Part shown: positions 37,857 to 44,210 of the stretch, piece after piece | Position numbering within the stretch: position 1 is the stretch's first letter | Layout: each line of letters starts with the position of its first letter | Origin: Natronomonas moolapensis 8.8.11 | GTDB taxonomy: Archaea; Halobacteriota; Halobacteria; Halobacteriales; Haloarculaceae | NCBI RefSeq assembly: GCF_000591055.1 | Contig: NC_020388.1 | Span: 434,001 to 498,000, forward strand | DNA length: 64,000 bases | Reading direction: 5' to 3' | Notes under the pieces: generated by a model | What the model saw: the letters and a program-made list of their open reading frames with translations, nothing else | Told to the model about the DNA's origin: nothing | Database searches by the model: none | Position numbers and translations under genes: made by a program

Positions 37857-38123
37857 TCACCTCTCGGGCAGGCGGCGTTCCATCGCCTCGACGTAGCCGG
37901 CGGCGAGTTCGCCGTCCGGGAGCGCTCCGACGGCGGCCGCACAACCGTGTCGGAGGCGCTCGCGCCGGTCGCCTTCGGGGAGTTTGTTCTCGGCGACGGT
38001 CCCGGCGGTTTCGAGCAGCGAGCGGGCGGTTTCGGCGTCACCGTCCCGGGCCGACTGCCGGGCATTCGAGAGGAGTTGGCCGAGACTCGAGCGCACGTCC
38101 GGGGGCATCTCCCCGTCAGACAT
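37857..38123 (-). CDS. Small all-helical protein, unknown function
   Basis: 88 aa. The sequence MSDGEMPPDVRSSLGQLLSNARQSARDGDAETARSLLETAGTVAENKLPEGDRRERLRHGCAAAVGAL... reads as three or four amphipathic helices with a TPR-like pattern (SARDGDAETARSLLETAGTVA). I do not recognise a named family. The start overlaps the stop of the methyltransferase gene by 8 bp (38116-38123), so the two are translated together, and the small protein may assist or regulate the methyltransferase. Convergent with the DehI gene, 16 bp apart. Confidence 0.75.
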   Translation of the reverse strand: MSDGEMPPDVRSSLGQLLSNARQSARDGDAETARSLLETAGTVAENKLPEGDRRERLRHGCAAAVGALPDGELAAGYVEAMERRLPER

Positions 38124-38712
38124 GGCGGGCGAAAACGAACTCGGTGTCGCTCCCGAGCGGATCGCCCGCCGTCTCCGTCCGGAGTTCGTCGAAGCCGGCC
38201 GAGTGGAGCTGTGTGGTCGTGCGCTCGCGTCCGGGGGCCGAAAAGAACATCCGCCCGCCCATCCAGCCACGCCGTATCGTCTCGAAGCGTCCGCCAGGGA
38301 GCGTCATCAATAGCCGCCCCCCGGGGCGGAGGACGCGTGCGAACTCGGCGTACACCTCGGGGTGACGCCCCCGTGGGACGTGAAACACCGCGTGATACGC
38401 CGTGATGGCGTCGAAGACGCCGTCGGCGAACGGGAGTTCGGACATTTCGCCGTGGACGAGCCGGGCCACCGGTGTCGTCTCGGCCGCGAGGTCGAGCCCG
38501 CGGCGGGAGATGTCCACCCCGACGCTTCCGGGCGGCAGGTTCGCGAGCGTGCGAGCGCCGTCTCCACAGCCGACGTCGAGTACGTCTGGCTCGGCGGGTA
38601 GCGCCGCGAGCAGCTCGTCGATCAGCGCCGCGTCGGAGCCGTCGGGGTCGCGCCGCTCGGCGTACGTCTCGGAGACGGCGTCCCAGGCTCGCCGCAGTTC
38701 GGTCCGATCCAT
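38116..38712 (-). CDS. Class I SAM-dependent methyltransferase
   Basis: 198 aa. It begins with a ubiE-like N-terminus (AWDAVSETYAERRDPDGSDAALIDELLAAL), then motif I DVLDVGCGDGA (about 43-53), acidic loop VGVDISRRGL, motif II-like FADGVFDAITAYHAVFHV and motif III LRPGGRLLMTLPGGR. The fold is Methyltransf_11. The substrate is unknown; relatives methylate quinones, small molecules or lipids. It is followed by an overlapping 88-aa gene in an apparent two-gene operon; the ureohydrolase gene ends 50 bp upstream on the same strand. Confidence 0.88.
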   Translation of the reverse strand: MDRTELRRAWDAVSETYAERRDPDGSDAALIDELLAALPAEPDVLDVGCGDGARTLANLPPGSVGVDISRRGLDLAAETTPVARLVHGEMSELPFADGVFDAITAYHAVFHVPRGRHPEVYAEFARVLRPGGRLLMTLPGGRFETIRRGWMGGRMFFSAPGRERTTTQLHSAGFDELRTETAGDPLGSDTEFVFARHV

Positions 38713-38762: not shown

Positions 38763-39869
38763 TCAGTCGTCGGTCGGCTGGGCCTGCGTCGTCGGGCCGA
38801 GCGGCTCTTTGGGCTTGATCGGCGAGCCCTCTTCGAGGCCCTGCTCGGCGAGCGCCATGCTCCCCATGACTTCGATGATGAGGCGGTTTGCGAGCCCGCT
38901 GGTGACGCCGCCGTTGTAGGAGTTCGTGTCGCTGGTGTCGTAGGCCGGCGACACCTCGACCACGTCGAAGCCGAAGTCGTCGGGATCGAGCGCCTTGACG
39001 ACCTCTCGGATCATGTAGATCGCCTCGCGGGGGACGAGACCGCCCGGCTCGGGCTCGCCGGTCCCGGGTGCGTAGGCGGGCTCCATCACGTCGACGTCGA
39101 AGGAGACCCAGACGGCGTCGGTGCCGTCAGTGGCCCGCTGGACCGCGTCGGCGACGATGTCGTCGAGGTCCATATTGGCAACCTCCATCGACGTGTACCA
39201 CTTCATGCCCGCCTCGCGCATCGCCTCGTAGGTGTCGGGGCCGGGCCAGAAGCCGCGGGGGCCGATCAGCGTGTAGTTCTCGCCGGCCATCAGGCCGTCG
39301 TCGTAGACCCGCTTGACCCACGCGCCGTGGTCGTACTCGAAGCCGGTGAGCCCCTCGTCGCCCGTATCGGCGTGACAGTCGAAGTGGATCAGCCCGATGT
39401 CCTCGTAGCCGTTGGCCTCGGCCCAGCCCTTGATATCGGGGTAGGAGATCGAGTGGTCGCCCCCGATGACGATGGGCGTCGCCTGCTCGGAGATCTCGGC
39501 GACCGCGTTCTCGATGTTGAGCTGGCTCTGCCGGGTGTCGCCCGGCGAGACCGCCGCGTCACCGGTGTCGGCGACGCTGAACGTGTCGAAGGGGTCGACG
39601 CCGGTCTCGATGTTGAAGTGCTCGTAGGGCGGGGAGGGCACCGTCGAGGCCGCCCGCACCGCACGCGGGCCATAGCGGGTCCCGGGGCGGATCGTCGTCG
39701 CCGTATCCAGCGGCGCGCCGACGATCCCGATGTCGACGTCCTCGGCGTCCAGCCGGTCCCGCTCGACTTCGGGGAGTTTCAGGAACGTCGGGATGCCGCT
39801 GAATATGGGCTCGTTCGACTCTTTGTACTCGTCGCCGTATATATCCTCGCCGGATCGTTCGTCTGTCAT
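38763..39869 (-). CDS. Ureohydrolase (agmatinase/arginase superfamily)
   Basis: 368 aa manganese-type hydrolase that releases urea from a guanidino compound. All metal ligands are visible: IGGDHSISYP (His), HFDCHADTG (Asp, His, Asp) and SFDVDVMEPAYAPGTGEPEPGG (two Asp). The variant residues DCHAD instead of the usual DAHxD and DVMEP instead of DVLDP, plus an N-terminal 45-residue extension (KESNEPIFSGIPTFLKLPEVE), separate it from classical agmatinase. The substrate might be agmatine, guanidinobutyrate, guanidinopropionate or guanidine; I cannot choose. It has no obvious operon partner. Confidence 0.85.
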   Translation of the reverse strand: MTDERSGEDIYGDEYKESNEPIFSGIPTFLKLPEVERDRLDAEDVDIGIVGAPLDTATTIRPGTRYGPRAVRAASTVPSPPYEHFNIETGVDPFDTFSVADTGDAAVSPGDTRQSQLNIENAVAEISEQATPIVIGGDHSISYPDIKGWAEANGYEDIGLIHFDCHADTGDEGLTGFEYDHGAWVKRVYDDGLMAGENYTLIGPRGFWPGPDTYEAMREAGMKWYTSMEVANMDLDDIVADAVQRATDGTDAVWVSFDVDVMEPAYAPGTGEPEPGGLVPREAIYMIREVVKALDPDDFGFDVVEVSPAYDTSDTNSYNGGVTSGLANRLIIEVMGSMALAEQGLEEGSPIKPKEPLGPTTQAQPTDD

Positions 39870-40309: not shown

Positions 40310-40645
40310 TCACGTCCGGACGCGAACCACGACCTCCCGGACGCGCGGCGCGTACACCGACATCTCCCGACCTCGGGCCGAGTACCACACGTCGGCTTCG
40401 GTGATGACACCGGCGTCCTCGAGTTGCGAGAGGTGATACCCGGCGTTCTGAATCGACGTGTCGACGGACGCGGCGATCTCGGAGGCAGTCGCAGGATCGG
40501 CCAGTATCCGTTCGAGGATCGATCTCGCGGTCTCGGAAGCCAGCGCCTCGAACACACGCCCGGCCGAACCATCACCGAGGTCCACTGTCATCCGCTCTTC
40601 GAGCGTGTGACTGACCGACGGGCAATGGGGAAACGCACTCGCCAT
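40310..40645 (-). CDS. ArsR-type winged-helix regulator
   Basis: 111 aa. The winged helix covers about 28-95: GRVFEALASETARSILERILADPATASEIAASVDTSIQNAGYHLSQLEDAGVITEADVWYSARGREMSVYAP (recognition helix TSIQNAGYHLSQLEDAG; wing WYSARGREMSVY). It is the last gene of a short minus-strand unit, 5 bp after the stop of a sensor-domain membrane protein, so the pair is probably translated together. Haloarchaea have many such HTH/membrane-protein pairs. The longest frame extends far upstream inside the sensor gene on another frame; MASAFPHCPS is the sensible start. Confidence 0.82.
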   Translation of the reverse strand: MASAFPHCPSVSHTLEERMTVDLGDGSAGRVFEALASETARSILERILADPATASEIAASVDTSIQNAGYHLSQLEDAGVITEADVWYSARGREMSVYAPRVREVVVRVRT

Positions 40646-40650
40646 CGGGA

Positions 40651-41346
40651 TCACTCCGTCCCGTTCCGTGTCCCGTCGAACTCCAGCAACGCCGCCGTCA
40701 TGAGTCCGCCGGCGGTGGCGAGTCCACTCAGTAGATACAGCGAACCGAGGCCGACGATCACTCCGACGACGGCGAGGCCGAGCGCTTCGGGGAGCGTATC
40801 CACCACGTGCGTGCCGACCGTGTACGTCACGTCGGGGGCGTCGTACGCCAGCGGCGCGCCGAGAAGCGACGCCGTCGCCGCGGCCGCCGTGACCGAAATA
40901 ACGAGTACGAACACGCCGTAGATGGACTTGAGCGCCAACAGCGCGAGGGCAGTCCACGTGGTCGGGGCGGTGAACAGGCCGAGGAGCGTCTCGACGAGCC
41001 CGTTTTCTACTCGCCGGAGTCCGTCGGGGTTGTCCGCCCGGAGGGGTTCCGGGAGCGGCGCCTCGATGCCGAGGAGTCCCGACGTGAGCCGCGCTTCGAC
41101 GGCTCCAAGGAACGCGACGCCGACGACCGTGAGAACGACAACCGGCACGCCCACGAGCAGCAGGCTCGTTCCGACGCCAACCGAGAGCCCGACGGCCAGG
41201 AACACGAAATAGGTGACCCCGAGCGGGAACGCCAACAGCAGATATAGTAGCTTTGCGTACGTTTCTGTTCGGAACGGCGCGCCGGCGAATCGACGGAGAG
41301 GGCGGCCGTCCGATCCGTTCCGCGTTGCGGTTTGGTTGTCTGTCAT
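40651..41346 (-). CDS. Sensor-domain (PF13796-like) membrane protein, copy 1
   Basis: 231 aa. After a polar 33-residue start come RTETYAKLLYLLLAFPLGVTYFVFLAVGLSVGVGTSLLLVGVPVVVLTV, the diagnostic first part of the 'putative sensor' domain (LAYLLLxFPLGIxYFVxLxxGLxxG). Further hydrophobic blocks follow at about 50-75, 120-150 and 200-225, with a soluble loop containing PDVTYTVGTHVVDTLPEAL near 175. In bacteria this domain often precedes a histidine kinase; here it stands alone and is paired with an ArsR-type regulator. It starts near a TATA-like ggtatat (about 41382-41388, minus). A paralogue lies on the plus strand 1.4 kb away. Confidence 0.82.
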   Translation of the reverse strand: MTDNQTATRNGSDGRPLRRFAGAPFRTETYAKLLYLLLAFPLGVTYFVFLAVGLSVGVGTSLLLVGVPVVVLTVVGVAFLGAVEARLTSGLLGIEAPLPEPLRADNPDGLRRVENGLVETLLGLFTAPTTWTALALLALKSIYGVFVLVISVTAAAATASLLGAPLAYDAPDVTYTVGTHVVDTLPEALGLAVVGVIVGLGSLYLLSGLATAGGLMTAALLEFDGTRNGTE

Positions 41347-41450
41347 GAGTTCACCACAACTGGACCGAGACGGGGCAACGACATATACCGGGAGGTCGGG
41401 TTGGCGAGTCGCCAAATGGGCGAAAGATATTTATATAGTTATGCGACCGG

Positions 41451-41729
41451 CTATCGATCGAACGTCGTGTAGATCGCTGCCAGTCCGATGGCATGCGAAA
41501 GCGTGACAAATACGATGAGGACGGCGTCCGACGCGCCCGTCACAGGGTCGACGACGCGGTCGACGACGTACGGAACGACGGCGATACAGACGATCCCGAA
41601 CGAGAGCGCCCGCATCCGTCGGCTGTCGTTCCGACGGTAGCCGCGATACGCCAAGTAGGCGACGAACGATCCCACTATTGCGGTGAGCGCGGACACGACG
41701 GCCGTGAGAGTGGCAAGCGAGGCGGACAT
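41451..41729 (-). CDS. DUF7521-family small membrane protein
   Basis: 92 aa, three spans: about 8-27, 44-60 and 68-90. The sequence TAIVGSFVAYLAYRGYRRNDSRRMRALSFGIVCIAVVPYVVD matches the haloarchaeal DUF7521 pattern, in which a first span ends 'AYRAYRRT-S--LRALALGF' before the second. The function is unknown. It follows another DUF7521-like protein by only 2 bp, and that one overlaps a winged-helix gene, giving a three-gene operon. A TATA-like run (tatataaatatc, minus strand) lies downstream at about 41427-41438 and may drive the next gene. Confidence 0.78.
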   Translation of the reverse strand: MSASLATLTAVVSALTAIVGSFVAYLAYRGYRRNDSRRMRALSFGIVCIAVVPYVVDRVVDPVTGASDAVLIVFVTLSHAIGLAAIYTTFDR

Positions 41730-41731
41730 AG

Positions 41732-42106
41732 TTATCTCGTGTATACGACGTAGAGGAGGACGAGCAGTCCCGCCAGCTCCGACAGAGACGCGGCGAGCGT
41801 CTGCACCTCACCTGGAACCGCGTCGACGTTGGCGGCCACGAGCCGGACGAACATCGGCGCCGGCGCGAGAAAGAACATCCCGATCGCCAACAGCAGGACC
41901 GGACGGGAGTCCGTCCGGCGGTACCCCTCGACGAACCGGTAGGTGACGAGGACGGCGAGGAGGCTGGCGAGCAGGAAGGTGACGATGCCGAGCAACACGA
42001 CGGTCGCCGGCCCGCCGGTGACCTCGATTCCCGACGATACGAACGGTCCCGCCGCAGCGGTTCCGGGCGCTCGCCCCACGACAGCGGGGCGGTCGACTGG
42101 CGTCAT
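41732..42106 (-). CDS. DUF7521-like membrane protein, longer paralogue
   Basis: 124 aa. The first 30 residues are polar and Pro/Ala-rich; then TVVLLGIVTFLLASLLAVLVTYRFVEGYRRTDSRPVLLLAIGMFFLAPAPMFVRL and SLSELAGLLVLLYVVYTR. The pattern TYRFVEGYRRTDSRPVLLLAIGM is the same 'YRRxDSRxxxxLxxG' element as in the 92-aa neighbour, so the two are paralogues from a local duplication. Its start overlaps the stop of the winged-helix gene by 4 bp (42103-42106), and its stop lies 2 bp before the next gene. Unknown function. Confidence 0.78.
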   Translation of the reverse strand: MTPVDRPAVVGRAPGTAAAGPFVSSGIEVTGGPATVVLLGIVTFLLASLLAVLVTYRFVEGYRRTDSRPVLLLAIGMFFLAPAPMFVRLVAANVDAVPGEVQTLAASLSELAGLLVLLYVVYTR

Positions 42107-42459
42107 CCGGAGAACTCCTCGTACAGTCTGGTGAACGTATCCGCGGCTTCGCGCTCGACGTACTCGACGTCGACGTCGAGTCCGTCAGCCGTCACGTTCA
42201 CGCCGACGTGTTCCAGCCGGGCCGTGTACTCCTTGTAGTGATGTCCCTCCGGGTCGAGACGCTGCTGGGCGTCGAGCAACCCGCTGTCCTCCAGTCGGCC
42301 GATACGCCGATACACCGTCGAGGGGTCGGCATCGCACGCAGTGCTCAGCGCCGATGCCGACCGCGGCTCCCGATACGTCTCGACGATGATCGTCCGCGCG
42401 TACTCGTCGTTCAAAAGCGACAGCACGGCCGCATCGTCGGCGGCCACTCGCTGTATCAT
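42103..42459 (-). CDS. Winged-helix regulator heading the DUF7521 operon
   Basis: 118 aa. The HTH is DAAVLSLLNDEYARTIIVETYREPRSASALSTACDADPSTVYRRIGRLEDSGLLDAQQRLDPEGHHYKEYTARLEHV, with recognition helix DPSTVYRRIGRLEDSG and wing LDPEGHHYKEYTA. The C-terminal 25 residues (VTADGLDVDVEYVEREAADTFTRLYEEFSG) are of the kind seen in haloarchaeal regulators that accompany small membrane proteins. It is the first gene of an operon with two DUF7521-type genes (4-bp overlap, then 2-bp gap). The longer upstream frame is basic and not plausible. Promoter and operator should lie in the 274 bp shared with the divergent sensor gene. Confidence 0.82.
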   Translation of the reverse strand: MIQRVAADDAAVLSLLNDEYARTIIVETYREPRSASALSTACDADPSTVYRRIGRLEDSGLLDAQQRLDPEGHHYKEYTARLEHVGVNVTADGLDVDVEYVEREAADTFTRLYEEFSG

Positions 42460-42733
42460 CGACCGCGGTCCCGGACACGAACGGCGTCGGTGCGGCAGCC
42501 GGCCGCCGGTGTGGGACTCGACGGCCGGATCGGAGACGCTTCGGAACGGCGTGGGGACACCGACATCGATCCGATATAGGGTCCTCGCGGGAGCGAAATA
42601 ACCGTTCGGGTAACTACGGTTCGTTTCGAAGCTGCGGCGAACCGTATCGGCCGGGGACAGAGCGGGCCCAACCGCCCTCAGTGCGGACGCCGAGGGAGAG
42701 GACTTTTTTCTCCGACGTCCGGACCGTTCGAAT

Positions 42734-43495
42734 ATGCGGTCCCTCACCCTCCCCTCCCGGTCGGAGCTTCCCCGGCCCTCGGCGACATCGGTGTTTCTGA
42801 GCCCGTTGCGCCCGAGGACGTACGGCAACCTCGCGTACCTGCTGTTGGCGTTCCCGCTCGGGATCGCCTATTTCGTGTTCCTGACCGTCGGCCTCTCCGT
42901 CGGCGGCGCGCTCGTCGTCTTGGTCGTGGGCGCGCCGATACTCGTGTTCGTCCTCGGATGCTGTCACCTCGGCGCGTGGTTCGAGCGCCTCACCGCCCGG
43001 TATCTTCTGGGTCTCGATATTCGGTCGCCGGGGTATCCGTTCCTCGAGACTGATGGCCCCCTCGCCCGCCTTCGCGCCCTCGTGCTCGGGCGCGAAACGT
43101 GGGCAGCAGCGGGGTATTTAGCGAGCAAGTTCGTGATCGGCGTTGCCTCGTTCGTTCTAGTGACGACCCTCCTTTCGGTGTCGTTATCACTGCTCTCGGC
43201 GCCGCTGTACTACGATGATCCGGGCGTCTCTGTCGGCCTGCGACTCCCCGATCCGGTCACGCTCACGCCGTCACTGCGGATTCCATGGGGTGAACTGCTG
43301 ATCGGCGCGGAGTTCGCGGTGACGATCACGAGTTGGACAGTGACGACGCTGCCGGCGGCGCTTGCGATGTCCGCGGTCGGCCTCGTTTCGCTCGCCGTCT
43401 CCCTCGCCGTTTGCAACGGGGTCGCGTGGCTCCTCGGCCGGTTCACCCGGTTCCTCTTGGGTGCTGCGGAGCGGTCGTCGGACGCGACGCCGTGA
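42734..43495 (+). CDS. Sensor-domain (PF13796-like) membrane protein, copy 2
   Basis: 253 aa paralogue of the 40651-41346 protein. The common core is RTYGNLAYLLLAFPLGIAYFVFLTVGLSVGGALVVLVVGAPILVFVLG, then a loop with AWFERLTARYLLGLDI and a second hydrophobic half (IGVASFVLVTTLLSVSLSLLSAPLYYDDPGV; ALAMSAVGLVSLAVSLAVCNGVAWLLG). The N-terminal 28 residues are basic. It faces the regulator/DUF7521 operon divergently, with 274 bp between, and lies 199 bp before lutC. In bacteria this domain is a membrane sensor in kinase proteins; here no kinase is attached. Confidence 0.82.
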   Translation: MRSLTLPSRSELPRPSATSVFLSPLRPRTYGNLAYLLLAFPLGIAYFVFLTVGLSVGGALVVLVVGAPILVFVLGCCHLGAWFERLTARYLLGLDIRSPGYPFLETDGPLARLRALVLGRETWAAAGYLASKFVIGVASFVLVTTLLSVSLSLLSAPLYYDDPGVSVGLRLPDPVTLTPSLRIPWGELLIGAEFAVTITSWTVTTLPAALAMSAVGLVSLAVSLAVCNGVAWLLGRFTRFLLGAAERSSDATP

Positions 43496-43694: not shown

Positions 43695-44210
43695 ATGGCA
43701 ACACAACATACCGAACCAGCGCCCTTCGATCGATTCGAGCGGACGGTCGGGGCCTACGATGTCGGCGTACAACGGGTCCAGCCGTCGACGGTGCGCGAGA
43801 CGATAGCGGACCTCGTCTCGGGGCCGGCCGTCGGAACGCCGATCGACATCGAGGGGGCGACGCTTCCCGAGGCCGTGACCACGGGGCCGACCACCGCCGA
43901 ACTCGAAGCGGCCGAGACGGGCGTGACGACCGCGTCGCTGGCGATCGCGGAGTACGGAAGCGTCGTGCTCCGGGCGACGGCCGAGGGCAGCGAGCCGATC
44001 AGCCTGTTCAACGACCTGCACGTCGTCGTCCTCCGGGAGTCGGACATCGTCCCCGACATGGCGACGGCCTTCGAGTGGCTCGGCGAGGAGCTCCGGGCGA
44101 CCCGCGACTCGGCGATCATCGCGACCGGCCCCTCGGCGACGGCCGACATGGGGGCGCTCGTCCAGGGGGCCCACGGCCCGAAGGACGTGGAGGTGATCGT
44201 TGTCGCATGA
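43695..44210 (+). CDS. lutC: LUD-domain protein, LutC type
   Basis: 171 aa. The LUD fold of lactate utilisation protein C: FERTVGAYDVGVQRVQPSTVRETIADLV near the start, ETGVTTASLAIAEYGSVVLRATAEGSEPISLFNDLHVVVLRESDIVPDM (the AxxGT/GSxV element of LutC) and a C-terminal SATADMGALVQGAHGPKDVEVIVVA (conserved TxDIxxxLVxGxHGPxxxxVxLV). Together with the fused partner downstream it is expected to oxidise L-lactate to pyruvate at the membrane or through an electron carrier. Its stop overlaps the next start by 4 bp, so the pair is coupled. Confidence 0.88.
   Translation: MATQHTEPAPFDRFERTVGAYDVGVQRVQPSTVRETIADLVSGPAVGTPIDIEGATLPEAVTTGPTTAELEAAETGVTTASLAIAEYGSVVLRATAEGSEPISLFNDLHVVVLRESDIVPDMATAFEWLGEELRATRDSAIIATGPSATADMGALVQGAHGPKDVEVIVVA

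What the first reader, a model, noticed from the sequence alone, without database searches (positions are those of the whole stretch)
40310..43495. Compact cluster of two winged-helix regulators, two DUF7521 proteins and two paralogous sensor-domain membrane proteins
In 3.2 kb there are two HTH proteins, two tandem DUF7521-type small membrane proteins and two copies of a PF13796-like sensor domain, in overlapping or near-overlapping units on opposite strands. No kinase or enzyme is present. The arrangement suggests membrane proteins that signal directly to small wHTH repressors, a possible one- or two-component-like system built from unstudied families.
Basis: partly seen in the sequence, partly recalled or inferred. 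Interest (0 to 1): 0.55.

Follow-up and report, generated by a model that had tools for sequence, protein, structure and literature searches.

The report
Archaeal membrane-to-gene-switch signalling cassette
Salt-loving archaea carry a conserved gene cassette in which small membrane proteins sit next to a matching DNA-binding switch, apparently letting the cell surface talk to genes without the usual kinase relay; we found no description of it.

Summary
In detail: six genes (two wHTH, two DUF7521, two PF13796) fill 40310-43495. The core is a conserved haloarchaeal module, HTH_A - DUF7521 - DUF7521 - short sensor, with a divergent long sensor. The dyad lies beside PF13796 at 37 of 79 sampled loci (window included), at 37 of 51 named haloarchaeal loci (10 of these 37 repeat sampled ones), and at 0 of 28 bacterial or other loci. 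HTH_B is an accessory.

(1) wHTH + DUF7521 is the real unit: 51 of 61 DUF7521 loci have HTH_A directly upstream; outside the order an Lrp/AsnC regulator usually takes its place. (2) A C-terminal helix in HTH_A and a DUF7521 neighbour occur or fail together in 57 of 59 homologues, so the helix may be the docking element. (3) All 18 two-sensor modules have exactly one sensor with a beta insert and one without. Many modules add a Tat-lipoprotein Toastrack (DUF4097) or an ABC-2 exporter.

Best reading: a kinase-free, envelope-sensing membrane-to-DNA system that works like SdpI-SdpR or HAAS-PadR but is built from other families. Genetic linkage is shown; physical contact, signal and output are inferred.

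The parts
42103..42459 (-). HTH_A: 118-aa winged helix protein (HTH_20/ArsR-like) with an extra beta hairpin and a C-terminal helix (residues 105-117, low confidence); core regulator of the module
   Evidence: Pfam; AlphaFold2 mean pLDDT 84; best PDB matches are Pyrococcus Phr (2p4w) and ArsR-type proteins; linked to DUF7521
41732..42106 (-). DUF7521a: small membrane protein, three hydrophobic segments by eye; 4-bp overlap with HTH_A
   Evidence: PF24365 30.9 bits, cut-off 27; overlap from ORF coordinates
41451..41729 (-). DUF7521b: second tandem DUF7521; the two are fused into one protein in Salinarchaeum laminariae (L210; L071 shares sequence with it and is the same or a very near genome)
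   Evidence: PF24365 48.1 bits; fusion
40651..41346 (-). Sensor1 (PF13796), short type without the insert; same strand as HTH_A
   Evidence: PF13796 97.8 bits; lies among mostly same-strand sensors on the tree, but as a long branch without starred support; 18 residues between the flanking motifs against 47 in Sensor2
42734..43495 (+). Sensor2 (PF13796), long type: four long helices and a beta-strand insert at about residues 165-200 between the third and fourth; divergent from HTH_A
   Evidence: PF13796 108 bits; AlphaFold2 mean pLDDT 90; no PDB match at E <= 0.001
40310..40591 (-). HTH_B: ArsR-like wHTH (start 40591, 40645 or 40654), probably read with Sensor1; accessory, not part of the conserved core
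   Evidence: HTH_20 47.8 bits, weak SdpR-model match below cut-off; relatives beside a sensor only in L180
41401..41415 (.). Perfect palindrome TTGGCGAGTCGCCAA, just downstream of the minus-strand TATA-like element, about where Sensor1 transcription would start: candidate operator, a lead only
   Evidence: inverted-repeat scan; the only site in the 2.9-Mb genome at up to 1 mismatch; at up to 3 mismatches the window has 4 matches against 3.35 by chance; not conserved in sequence in other loci
41428..41437 (-). TATA-like stretch TATATAAATA (minus strand) in the DUF7521b-Sensor1 gap: candidate promoter of Sensor1-HTH_B
   Evidence: read from the sequence; no experiment

Best explanation
This is a kinase-free membrane-to-DNA signalling module. 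Shown: HTH_A and DUF7521 form a conserved genetic dyad, and in many haloarchaea the dyad has two DUF7521 genes and one or two PF13796 membrane proteins, often plus a Tat-type Toastrack (DUF4097) lipoprotein or an ABC-2 exporter. Inferred: the two DUF7521 proteins form a membrane complex that docks the C-terminal helix of HTH_A; a long sensor (with a beta insert, probably outside the cell) and a short sensor form a heteromer that detects a change in the envelope, such as membrane or surface-layer stress or a membrane-active compound; the signal passes through DUF7521 and changes how much HTH_A is held at the membrane or how it binds DNA; HTH_A then controls its own operon, the sensors and any linked exporter or lipoprotein. 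HTH_B is a local extra repressor, possibly acting at the palindrome in front of Sensor1.
For: Dyad: 51 of 61 DUF7521 loci (60 sampled, one per genome and from the high-scoring part of the list, plus one from the own genome) have HTH_A directly upstream on the same strand. Reverse: of 59 HTH_A homologues in 7 genomes, 43 have both the C-terminal helix and a DUF7521 neighbour, 14 have neither, 2 disagree (Fisher p 1.7e-11). Outside the order, DUF7521 keeps an upstream wHTH in at least 26 of 29 loci (24 by profile, plus L164 and L172 by Pfam), and 9 of 10 of these scanned are Lrp/AsnC-type: one membrane partner, two regulator families. Module: 37 of 79 sampled sensor loci, 37 of 51 named haloarchaeal ones, of which 23 have sensors on both strands as here (12 of the 51, 10 of the 37, share sequence with sampled loci); 0 of 28 bacterial or other sensor loci. 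Sensors: all 18 two-sensor module loci have exactly one long and one short sensor, and 17 of 19 one-sensor module loci have the long one; strand labels cluster on the tree. DUF7521-DUF7521 fusion. Toastrack lipoprotein in 21 of 36 sampled module loci and 0 of 42 sensor loci without the dyad, and in 28 of 37 named module loci; Tat and lipobox motifs in 48 and 52 of 54 matches. ABC-2 permease cluster in 7 module loci.
Against: No contact, expression or phenotype data. Independent evolutionary contrasts for the helix-DUF7521 link are too few to test (2 on supported branches). 10 of 61 DUF7521 loci lack an adjacent same-strand HTH_A, some with no wHTH in view. 42 of 79 sensor loci have no dyad nearby. 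4 of 14 named haloarchaeal loci without the dyad still have the Toastrack protein. This genome has no Toastrack protein found by two searches and no exporter gene directly beside the module, so the output here is unknown. No shared operator was found upstream of HTH_A genes. No HTH_A fusion to DUF7521 or a sensor was found. Sensor-free dyads often lie near copper and respiratory genes, so envelope stress cannot be the general signal of the dyad.
Confidence: 0.5

Rival explanations
1. Ordinary local regulation: HTH_A is a cytoplasmic one-component repressor that simply controls neighbouring membrane genes; DUF7521 and the sensors are effectors (membrane adaptation or transport), not signal transducers, and never touch the regulator.
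For: A regulator beside its target is a common arrangement for small wHTH genes (general knowledge). DUF7521 also occurs without an adjacent HTH_A (10 of 61) and PF13796 without the dyad (42 of 79).
Against: The near one-to-one link of DUF7521 with one wHTH family and with its C-terminal helix (57 of 59 agree), and the change of regulator family to Lrp/AsnC with the membrane gene kept, are more than a regulator-target pair needs. The two DUF7521 proteins here match no enzyme or transporter family above cut-off.
Confidence: 0.28
2. An immunity and detoxification cassette of SdpRI or Bce type: the membrane proteins bind a halocin or other membrane-active compound, release the repressor, and induce immunity or export (ABC-2) functions.
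For: SdpI both receives the SdpC signal and sequesters SdpR at the membrane (PMC1626106, passages); HTH_B resembles the SdpR model weakly (31.3 bits against a cut-off of 100); ABC-2 exporter genes occur in some module loci.
Against: No SdpI-type family matched any of the membrane proteins. More module loci have Toastrack than an exporter. Halocin or toxin genes were not searched for.
Confidence: 0.12
3. The sensors work on their own as structural or lipid-interacting membrane proteins and share the locus with the dyad only because of inherited synteny.
For: Solo PF13796 genes exist: 42 of 79 sampled loci lack the dyad nearby, as do all 28 non-haloarchaeal loci.
Against: Module and solo sensors are clustered on the tree (11 label changes against a shuffled mean of 43.7); the one-long-one-short rule holds in 18 of 18 two-sensor loci; linkage persists over several families while gene order and strand vary.
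Confidence: 0.1

Closest known systems
HAAS-PadR-like wHTH dyad of bacteria (Ravi and others 2024, PMC11237479; passages read)
   Same: A signalling partner always beside a small stand-alone wHTH, often near Toastrack and membrane proteins, and proposed to replace a kinase-receiver pair
   Different: No HAAS, DUF1700 or DUF1129 match in DUF7521 or PF13796, and HTH_A is ArsR/Phr-like rather than PadR; the Toastrack here looks like a Tat lipoprotein outside the cell, whereas that paper proposes an intracellular platform
SdpI-SdpR of Bacillus subtilis (PMC1626106, passages read; ArsR family membership of SdpR recalled)
   Same: Polytopic membrane protein next to a small autorepressor, with direct membrane sequestration as the mechanism
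   Different: No SdpI-type match here; the archaeal set has two DUF7521 and two sensors, and the ligand is unknown
PF13796 'Putative sensor' proteins of bacteria
   Same: Same domain by Pfam or by profile; neighbours in hand-picked bacterial loci include LiaF-TM, MMPL, BlaI-BlaR1 and, two genes away, a kinase-regulator pair
   Different: None of 28 non-haloarchaeal loci shows HTH_A or DUF7521
Lia/Psp envelope-stress systems
   Same: Toastrack DUF4097 proteins and, in Chloroflexi locus L224, LiaF-type partners around the same sensor family
   Different: No two-component pair among the six genes; the archaeal part of a Psp survey (PMC9239133, section 10 read) does not mention this arrangement

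Membership tests
PF13796 (Putative sensor) | Match above the curated cut-off over the whole model | tested here: met
   97.8 and 108 bits against 28.2, model positions 1-162
DUF7521 (PF24365) | Match above the curated cut-off | tested here: met
   30.9 and 48.1 bits against 27
HAAS-PadR dyad | HAAS (DUF1700/DUF1129/DUF1048) domain in the partner | tested here: not met
   No such match up to E 1 in any of the four membrane proteins
HAAS-PadR dyad | PadR-type wHTH | tested here: not met
   HTH_A best is HTH_20; PadR 15.9 bits, below its cut-off of 27; best folds Phr and ArsR-type
SdpI-SdpR | SdpR-type autorepressor | tested here: inconclusive
   HTH_B 31.3 bits to the SdpR model, cut-off 100; HTH_A has no SdpR match up to E 1
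SdpI-SdpR | SdpI-family membrane protein | tested here: not met
   No SdpI family match listed in Pfam or NCBIfam
SdpI-SdpR | Repressor sequestered at the membrane on signal | not testable with these tools
   Needs localisation or pull-down
Two-component system | Histidine kinase and response regulator | tested here: not met
   None among the six genes
Lia/Psp envelope-stress system | Toastrack protein in the neighbourhood | tested here: inconclusive
   28 of 37 named module loci have it, but it was not found in the window's genome
Lia/Psp envelope-stress system | PspA/LiaH or PspC partner | not tested
   Module neighbours were not scanned systematically for these

The most novel reading that the evidence does not exclude
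wHTH + DUF7521 is a large, undescribed class of archaeal membrane-to-DNA signalling, with DUF7521 as a general membrane docking partner that can serve ArsR-like or Lrp/AsnC regulators through a C-terminal element, and the window's cassette is its envelope-sensing form: one long and one short PF13796 sensor, often with an outside Toastrack lipoprotein, replacing the kinase-based Lia-type circuit.
Probability: 0.42. Interest if true: 0.8.

Novelty: new variant of a known kind. Interest (0 to 1): 0.62.

Why it matters
DUF7521 occurs in 133 of 146 sampled genomes of the order, mostly in more than one copy, yet no paper in the searched open-access library names it. If the dyad is a signalling unit, it would be a widespread way for haloarchaea to connect membrane state to transcription, and how archaea do this without kinases becomes directly testable in species that can be genetically manipulated. 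It would also place PF13796 and Toastrack proteins in one archaeal circuit and give a defined docking element (the HTH_A C-terminal helix) to test.

Tried and rejected
Operator upstream of HTH_A: exact palindromes and shared 8-mers over 73 module and 54 sensor-free upstream regions and a palindromic motif search over 52 and 48 after removing near-copies gave no motif I trust. The motif search did score above its two shuffles in both sets (64.0 against 44-45 for module loci, 60.2 against 34-37 for sensor-free ones, width 16), but the module motif looks like GC-rich codon periodicity, and tests of the derived patterns were weak: TTATCGA-NN-TCGATAA at up to 3 mismatches in 5 of 48 sensor-free regions against 8 of 480 controls, other patterns at or below controls or slightly above. 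A shared 8-mer family (ATGGTCCG...) proved to be the start codon and first codons of HTH_A, not a binding site.

Redox sensing by an HTH_A cysteine: Cys42 is present in 76 of 91 and replaced by Ser, Ala or Thr in the rest, so it is probably structural; left as a weak lead.

Direct HTH_A-DUF7521, HTH_A-sensor or DUF7521-sensor fusions, which would have supported contact: none in 143 loci plus the window.

A model of the fused DUF7521 pair was considered, but in the rows shown the alignment put the single DUF7521 proteins on the second half of the fusion, so the structure jobs went to Sensor2 and HTH_A.

HTH_B as a second core regulator: rejected. Above 50 bits it or a relative lies next to a sensor only in the window and within 1.5 kb in Halobellus clavatus L180; others are 3.4-4.7 kb away (L008, L209, L043), and weaker matches (24-30 bits) lie 2.7-5 kb from sensors in L035, L037, L052 and L082.
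Full report
What is there. The window is part of a 2.9-Mb single-contig genome (G000). Between 40310 and 43495 there are six genes, each with a match above a Pfam cut-off. On the minus strand: HTH_A (42459-42103), DUF7521a (42106-41732), DUF7521b (41729-41451), Sensor1 (41346-40651), HTH_B (40591, 40645 or 40654 to 40310). On the plus strand: Sensor2 (42734-43495). The neighbours are an arginase-family protein (38763-39869), a methyltransferase (38116-38712) and a LUD-domain protein (43695-44210). Pfam shows no kinase or enzyme among the six.

How common the parts are. In 146 genomes of the order, DUF7521 occurs in 133 (53 of 56 genera; 120 of 122 good-quality genomes), mostly in more than one copy. 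PF13796 passes its cut-off in 65 of 146 (77 at E <= 0.001). The three other sampled genomes of the window's genus have DUF7521 but no PF13796 match. Over 246 genomes of the phylum (some of the order included), DUF7521 passes E 0.001 in 82; 42 of these are in the order and 40 outside it, the latter mostly with much weaker scores.

The dyad. I fetched 78 sensor stretches covering the places listed over the cut-off and 60 DUF7521 stretches (one per genome, taken from the listed, hence higher-scoring, places), built profiles from them and mapped the families. Of 61 DUF7521 loci (60 plus L001 from the own genome), 51 have HTH_A directly upstream on the same strand. The ten exceptions are L109, L117, L119, L120, L125, L132, L135, L137, L140 and L143; L125 has HTH_A on the other strand, L119 and L137 have other HTH-like genes nearby, and several show no wHTH. 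Of 69 HTH_A-DUF7521 junctions measured, 37 can be read with a 4-nt overlap; the script preferred that reading where several starts were possible.

The reverse test. Searching 7 genomes (chosen by me, the own included) with an HTH_A alignment gave 59 matches at E <= 9e-17; all 59 neighbourhoods were read (30 loci, 29). In 43 the match reaches the end of the model (C-terminal helix) and DUF7521 lies next; in 14 neither holds; L305 (DUF7521 but no helix end) and L314 (helix end but no DUF7521) disagree (Fisher p 1.7e-11). A few of the 14 stop only a few positions short of the threshold. On a tree of the core without the tail, only 2 independent contrasts sit on supported branches, going the same way or not differing, which is too few for a test.

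Beyond the order. Of the 40 genomes outside the order with a match, I gave 30 to and read one locus each. My DUF7521 profile matched 29. In 24 of these the longest ORF directly upstream on the same strand matches the wHTH profiles, some only at E 0.001-0.006; Pfam adds L164 and L172. Of ten such upstream proteins scanned, nine carry an AsnC-type HTH and the Lrp/AsnC ligand-binding domain, and one (L148) is of the ArsR/TrmB kind. The membrane gene thus stays while the regulator family changes, which is easier to understand if DUF7521 is the regulator's partner than if it is just a target gene.

The module. Of 79 sensor loci (78 plus the window), 37 have HTH_A and DUF7521 within 3.5 kb, and 42 do not. 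A scan of named genomes with module sensors gave 79 loci. Of the 51 haloarchaeal ones, 37 hold the dyad, 23 of them with sensors on both strands as in the window and 4 with two on the strand of HTH_A; of the other 28 (bacterial, plus one archaeal bin) none has HTH_A or DUF7521 by these profiles. The two samples overlap: 12 of the named loci, 10 of them among the 37, share sequence with sampled ones, so 27 of 39 is the independent figure. Examples: Haloarcula amylolytica (L178), Halobellus clavatus (L180), Halorussus aquaticus (L181), Natronococcus amylolyticus (L193), Natronorubrum texcoconense (L223). L223 has the highest identity to Sensor2 in that scan, 57% in the best segment.

Two sensors. 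On a tree of 94 sensors, the same-strand (co), divergent (div) and solo labels need 11 changes against a shuffled mean of 43.7; many forks are weak, Sensor1 is a long branch, and some solo sensors lie among module ones. AlphaFold2 (mean pLDDT 90, 56 sequences) gives Sensor2 four long helices with a beta-strand insert between the third and fourth. Judged by basic residues by eye, the insert lies outside the cell. 24 of 25 divergent sensors have an insert of 40 residues or more; 19 of 30 same-strand sensors lack it, Sensor1 among them (18 residues); 32 of 39 solo sensors are short. Counted by locus, all 18 two-sensor module loci have exactly one long and one short sensor, and 17 of 19 one-sensor module loci have the long one. 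The two exceptions, L058 and L067, have a long sensor (L057, L048) about 12 and 37 kb away on the same contig. Foldseek found no solved structure at E <= 0.001 for Sensor2.

HTH_A. The model (mean pLDDT 84) is a wHTH with a second beta hairpin and a C-terminal helix at low confidence (blocks of 57 and 54). The best PDB matches are the Pyrococcus heat-shock regulator Phr and ArsR-type proteins.

Extra members. A DUF4097 (Toastrack) protein lies in 21 of 36 sampled module loci, in none of the 42 sensor loci without the dyad and in none of the 61 DUF7521 loci; among named haloarchaeal loci in 28 of 37 with the dyad and in 4 of 14 without. The profile used was built from these proteins, so distant ones may be missed. 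48 of 54 matches have a twin-arginine-like motif and 52 of 54 a lipobox by simple patterns, so most are probably exported lipoproteins; this differs from the proposal that Toastrack is an intracellular platform (PMC11237479, passages) and agrees with the extracellular LiaG domain in PMC9239133 (passages). An ABC-2 permease cluster occurs in 7 sampled module loci (L006's member passes Pfam); L008 has an ATPase and a permease-like protein whose ABC-2 matches are below cut-off; L223 has an ATPase-permease pair judged by sequence. In the window's genome no Toastrack protein was found: no match with Pfam's model, and with an alignment of the archaeal proteins only short pieces, seven of eight in the signal-peptide part. 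Bacterial PF13796 genes looked at have LiaF-TM, MMPL, BlaI-BlaR1 or, two genes away, a kinase-regulator pair nearby; these are hand-picked examples, not a count.

HTH_B. Matches to it are common in the order (135 of 146 genomes), but next to a sensor a close relative was seen only in Halobellus clavatus, where the order is HTH_A-DUF7521-DUF7521-sensor-DUF4097-HTH_B, with a second relative on the other strand. Haloarcula amylolytica has a tail-less HTH_A-like gene at the same place. In the window the Sensor1-HTH_B unit has its own TATA-like element, and a perfect 15-bp palindrome at 41401-41415 lies about where transcription should start. It is the only such site in the genome at up to one mismatch. 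Perfect 7-bp arms also occur in about a third of the other sensor-DUF7521 gaps listed, with other sequences, so this is a lead only.

Mechanism. Precedents for a membrane protein acting straight on a small wHTH are SdpI-SdpR, where SdpI sequesters SdpR at the membrane (PMC1626106, passages), and the HAAS-PadR dyad, proposed to replace kinase-receiver pairs near Toastrack proteins. The present module follows the same logic with other parts: no HAAS or SdpI-type match, and no PadR match above cut-off. I therefore file it as a new variant of a known kind, not as a member of either. The steps shown are linkage, co-variation and architecture; docking, signal and output are inferred. In sensor-free dyads, flanking genes (61 of the 92 collected were scanned) include multicopper oxidases (7) and plastocyanin-type proteins (6), so the dyad probably serves different inputs in different places.

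Literature. No paper in the searched library holds 'DUF7521' or any of DUF7521, DUF7342, HVO_A0261 or 'haloarchaeal HTH'; two hold PF13796, seen only in the listing. A search for haloarchaeal winged-helix and small-membrane-protein operons gave one paper, seen only in the listing. Subscription papers and preprints are largely not covered.

Noticed in passing
L210:4152-4859 and L071:6926-7636: The two tandem DUF7521 proteins are fused into one protein in Salinarchaeum laminariae (L071 shares sequence with L210, so this is one or two very near genomes), which suggests that the pair works as one complex.
   Followed up: partly
L084-L143: Sensor-free HTH_A-DUF7521 dyads are often flanked by multicopper oxidases (7 of 61 flanking proteins scanned), plastocyanin/halocyanin-type proteins (6 of 61), DoxX (3) and a cytochrome bd oxidase: a possible respiratory or copper role.
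   Followed up: partly
L109, L120, L135, L143: A DUF7521 gene without an adjacent HTH_A recurs beside a short conserved gene with a CDGSH sequence and, in three of the four, a large metal-ATPase-like gene within about 3 kb (named from the sequence, not scanned).
   Followed up: no
L234, L250, L008, L014: MMPL (RND-type) membrane proteins stand beside or near PF13796 genes in both archaea and Actinobacteria (Pfam for L014 and L250; L008 by clustering; L234 by eye).
   Followed up: no
L208, L213, L222, L242: Natrialbaceae-type genomes (Natronorubrum, Natrialba, Natrarchaeobius) have a sensor directly after a Toastrack lipoprotein but no dyad within the fetched flank.
   Followed up: partly
window:43569-43584: Inverted repeat TCCGGACGGGTCCGGA between Sensor2 and the LUD-domain gene.
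   Followed up: no
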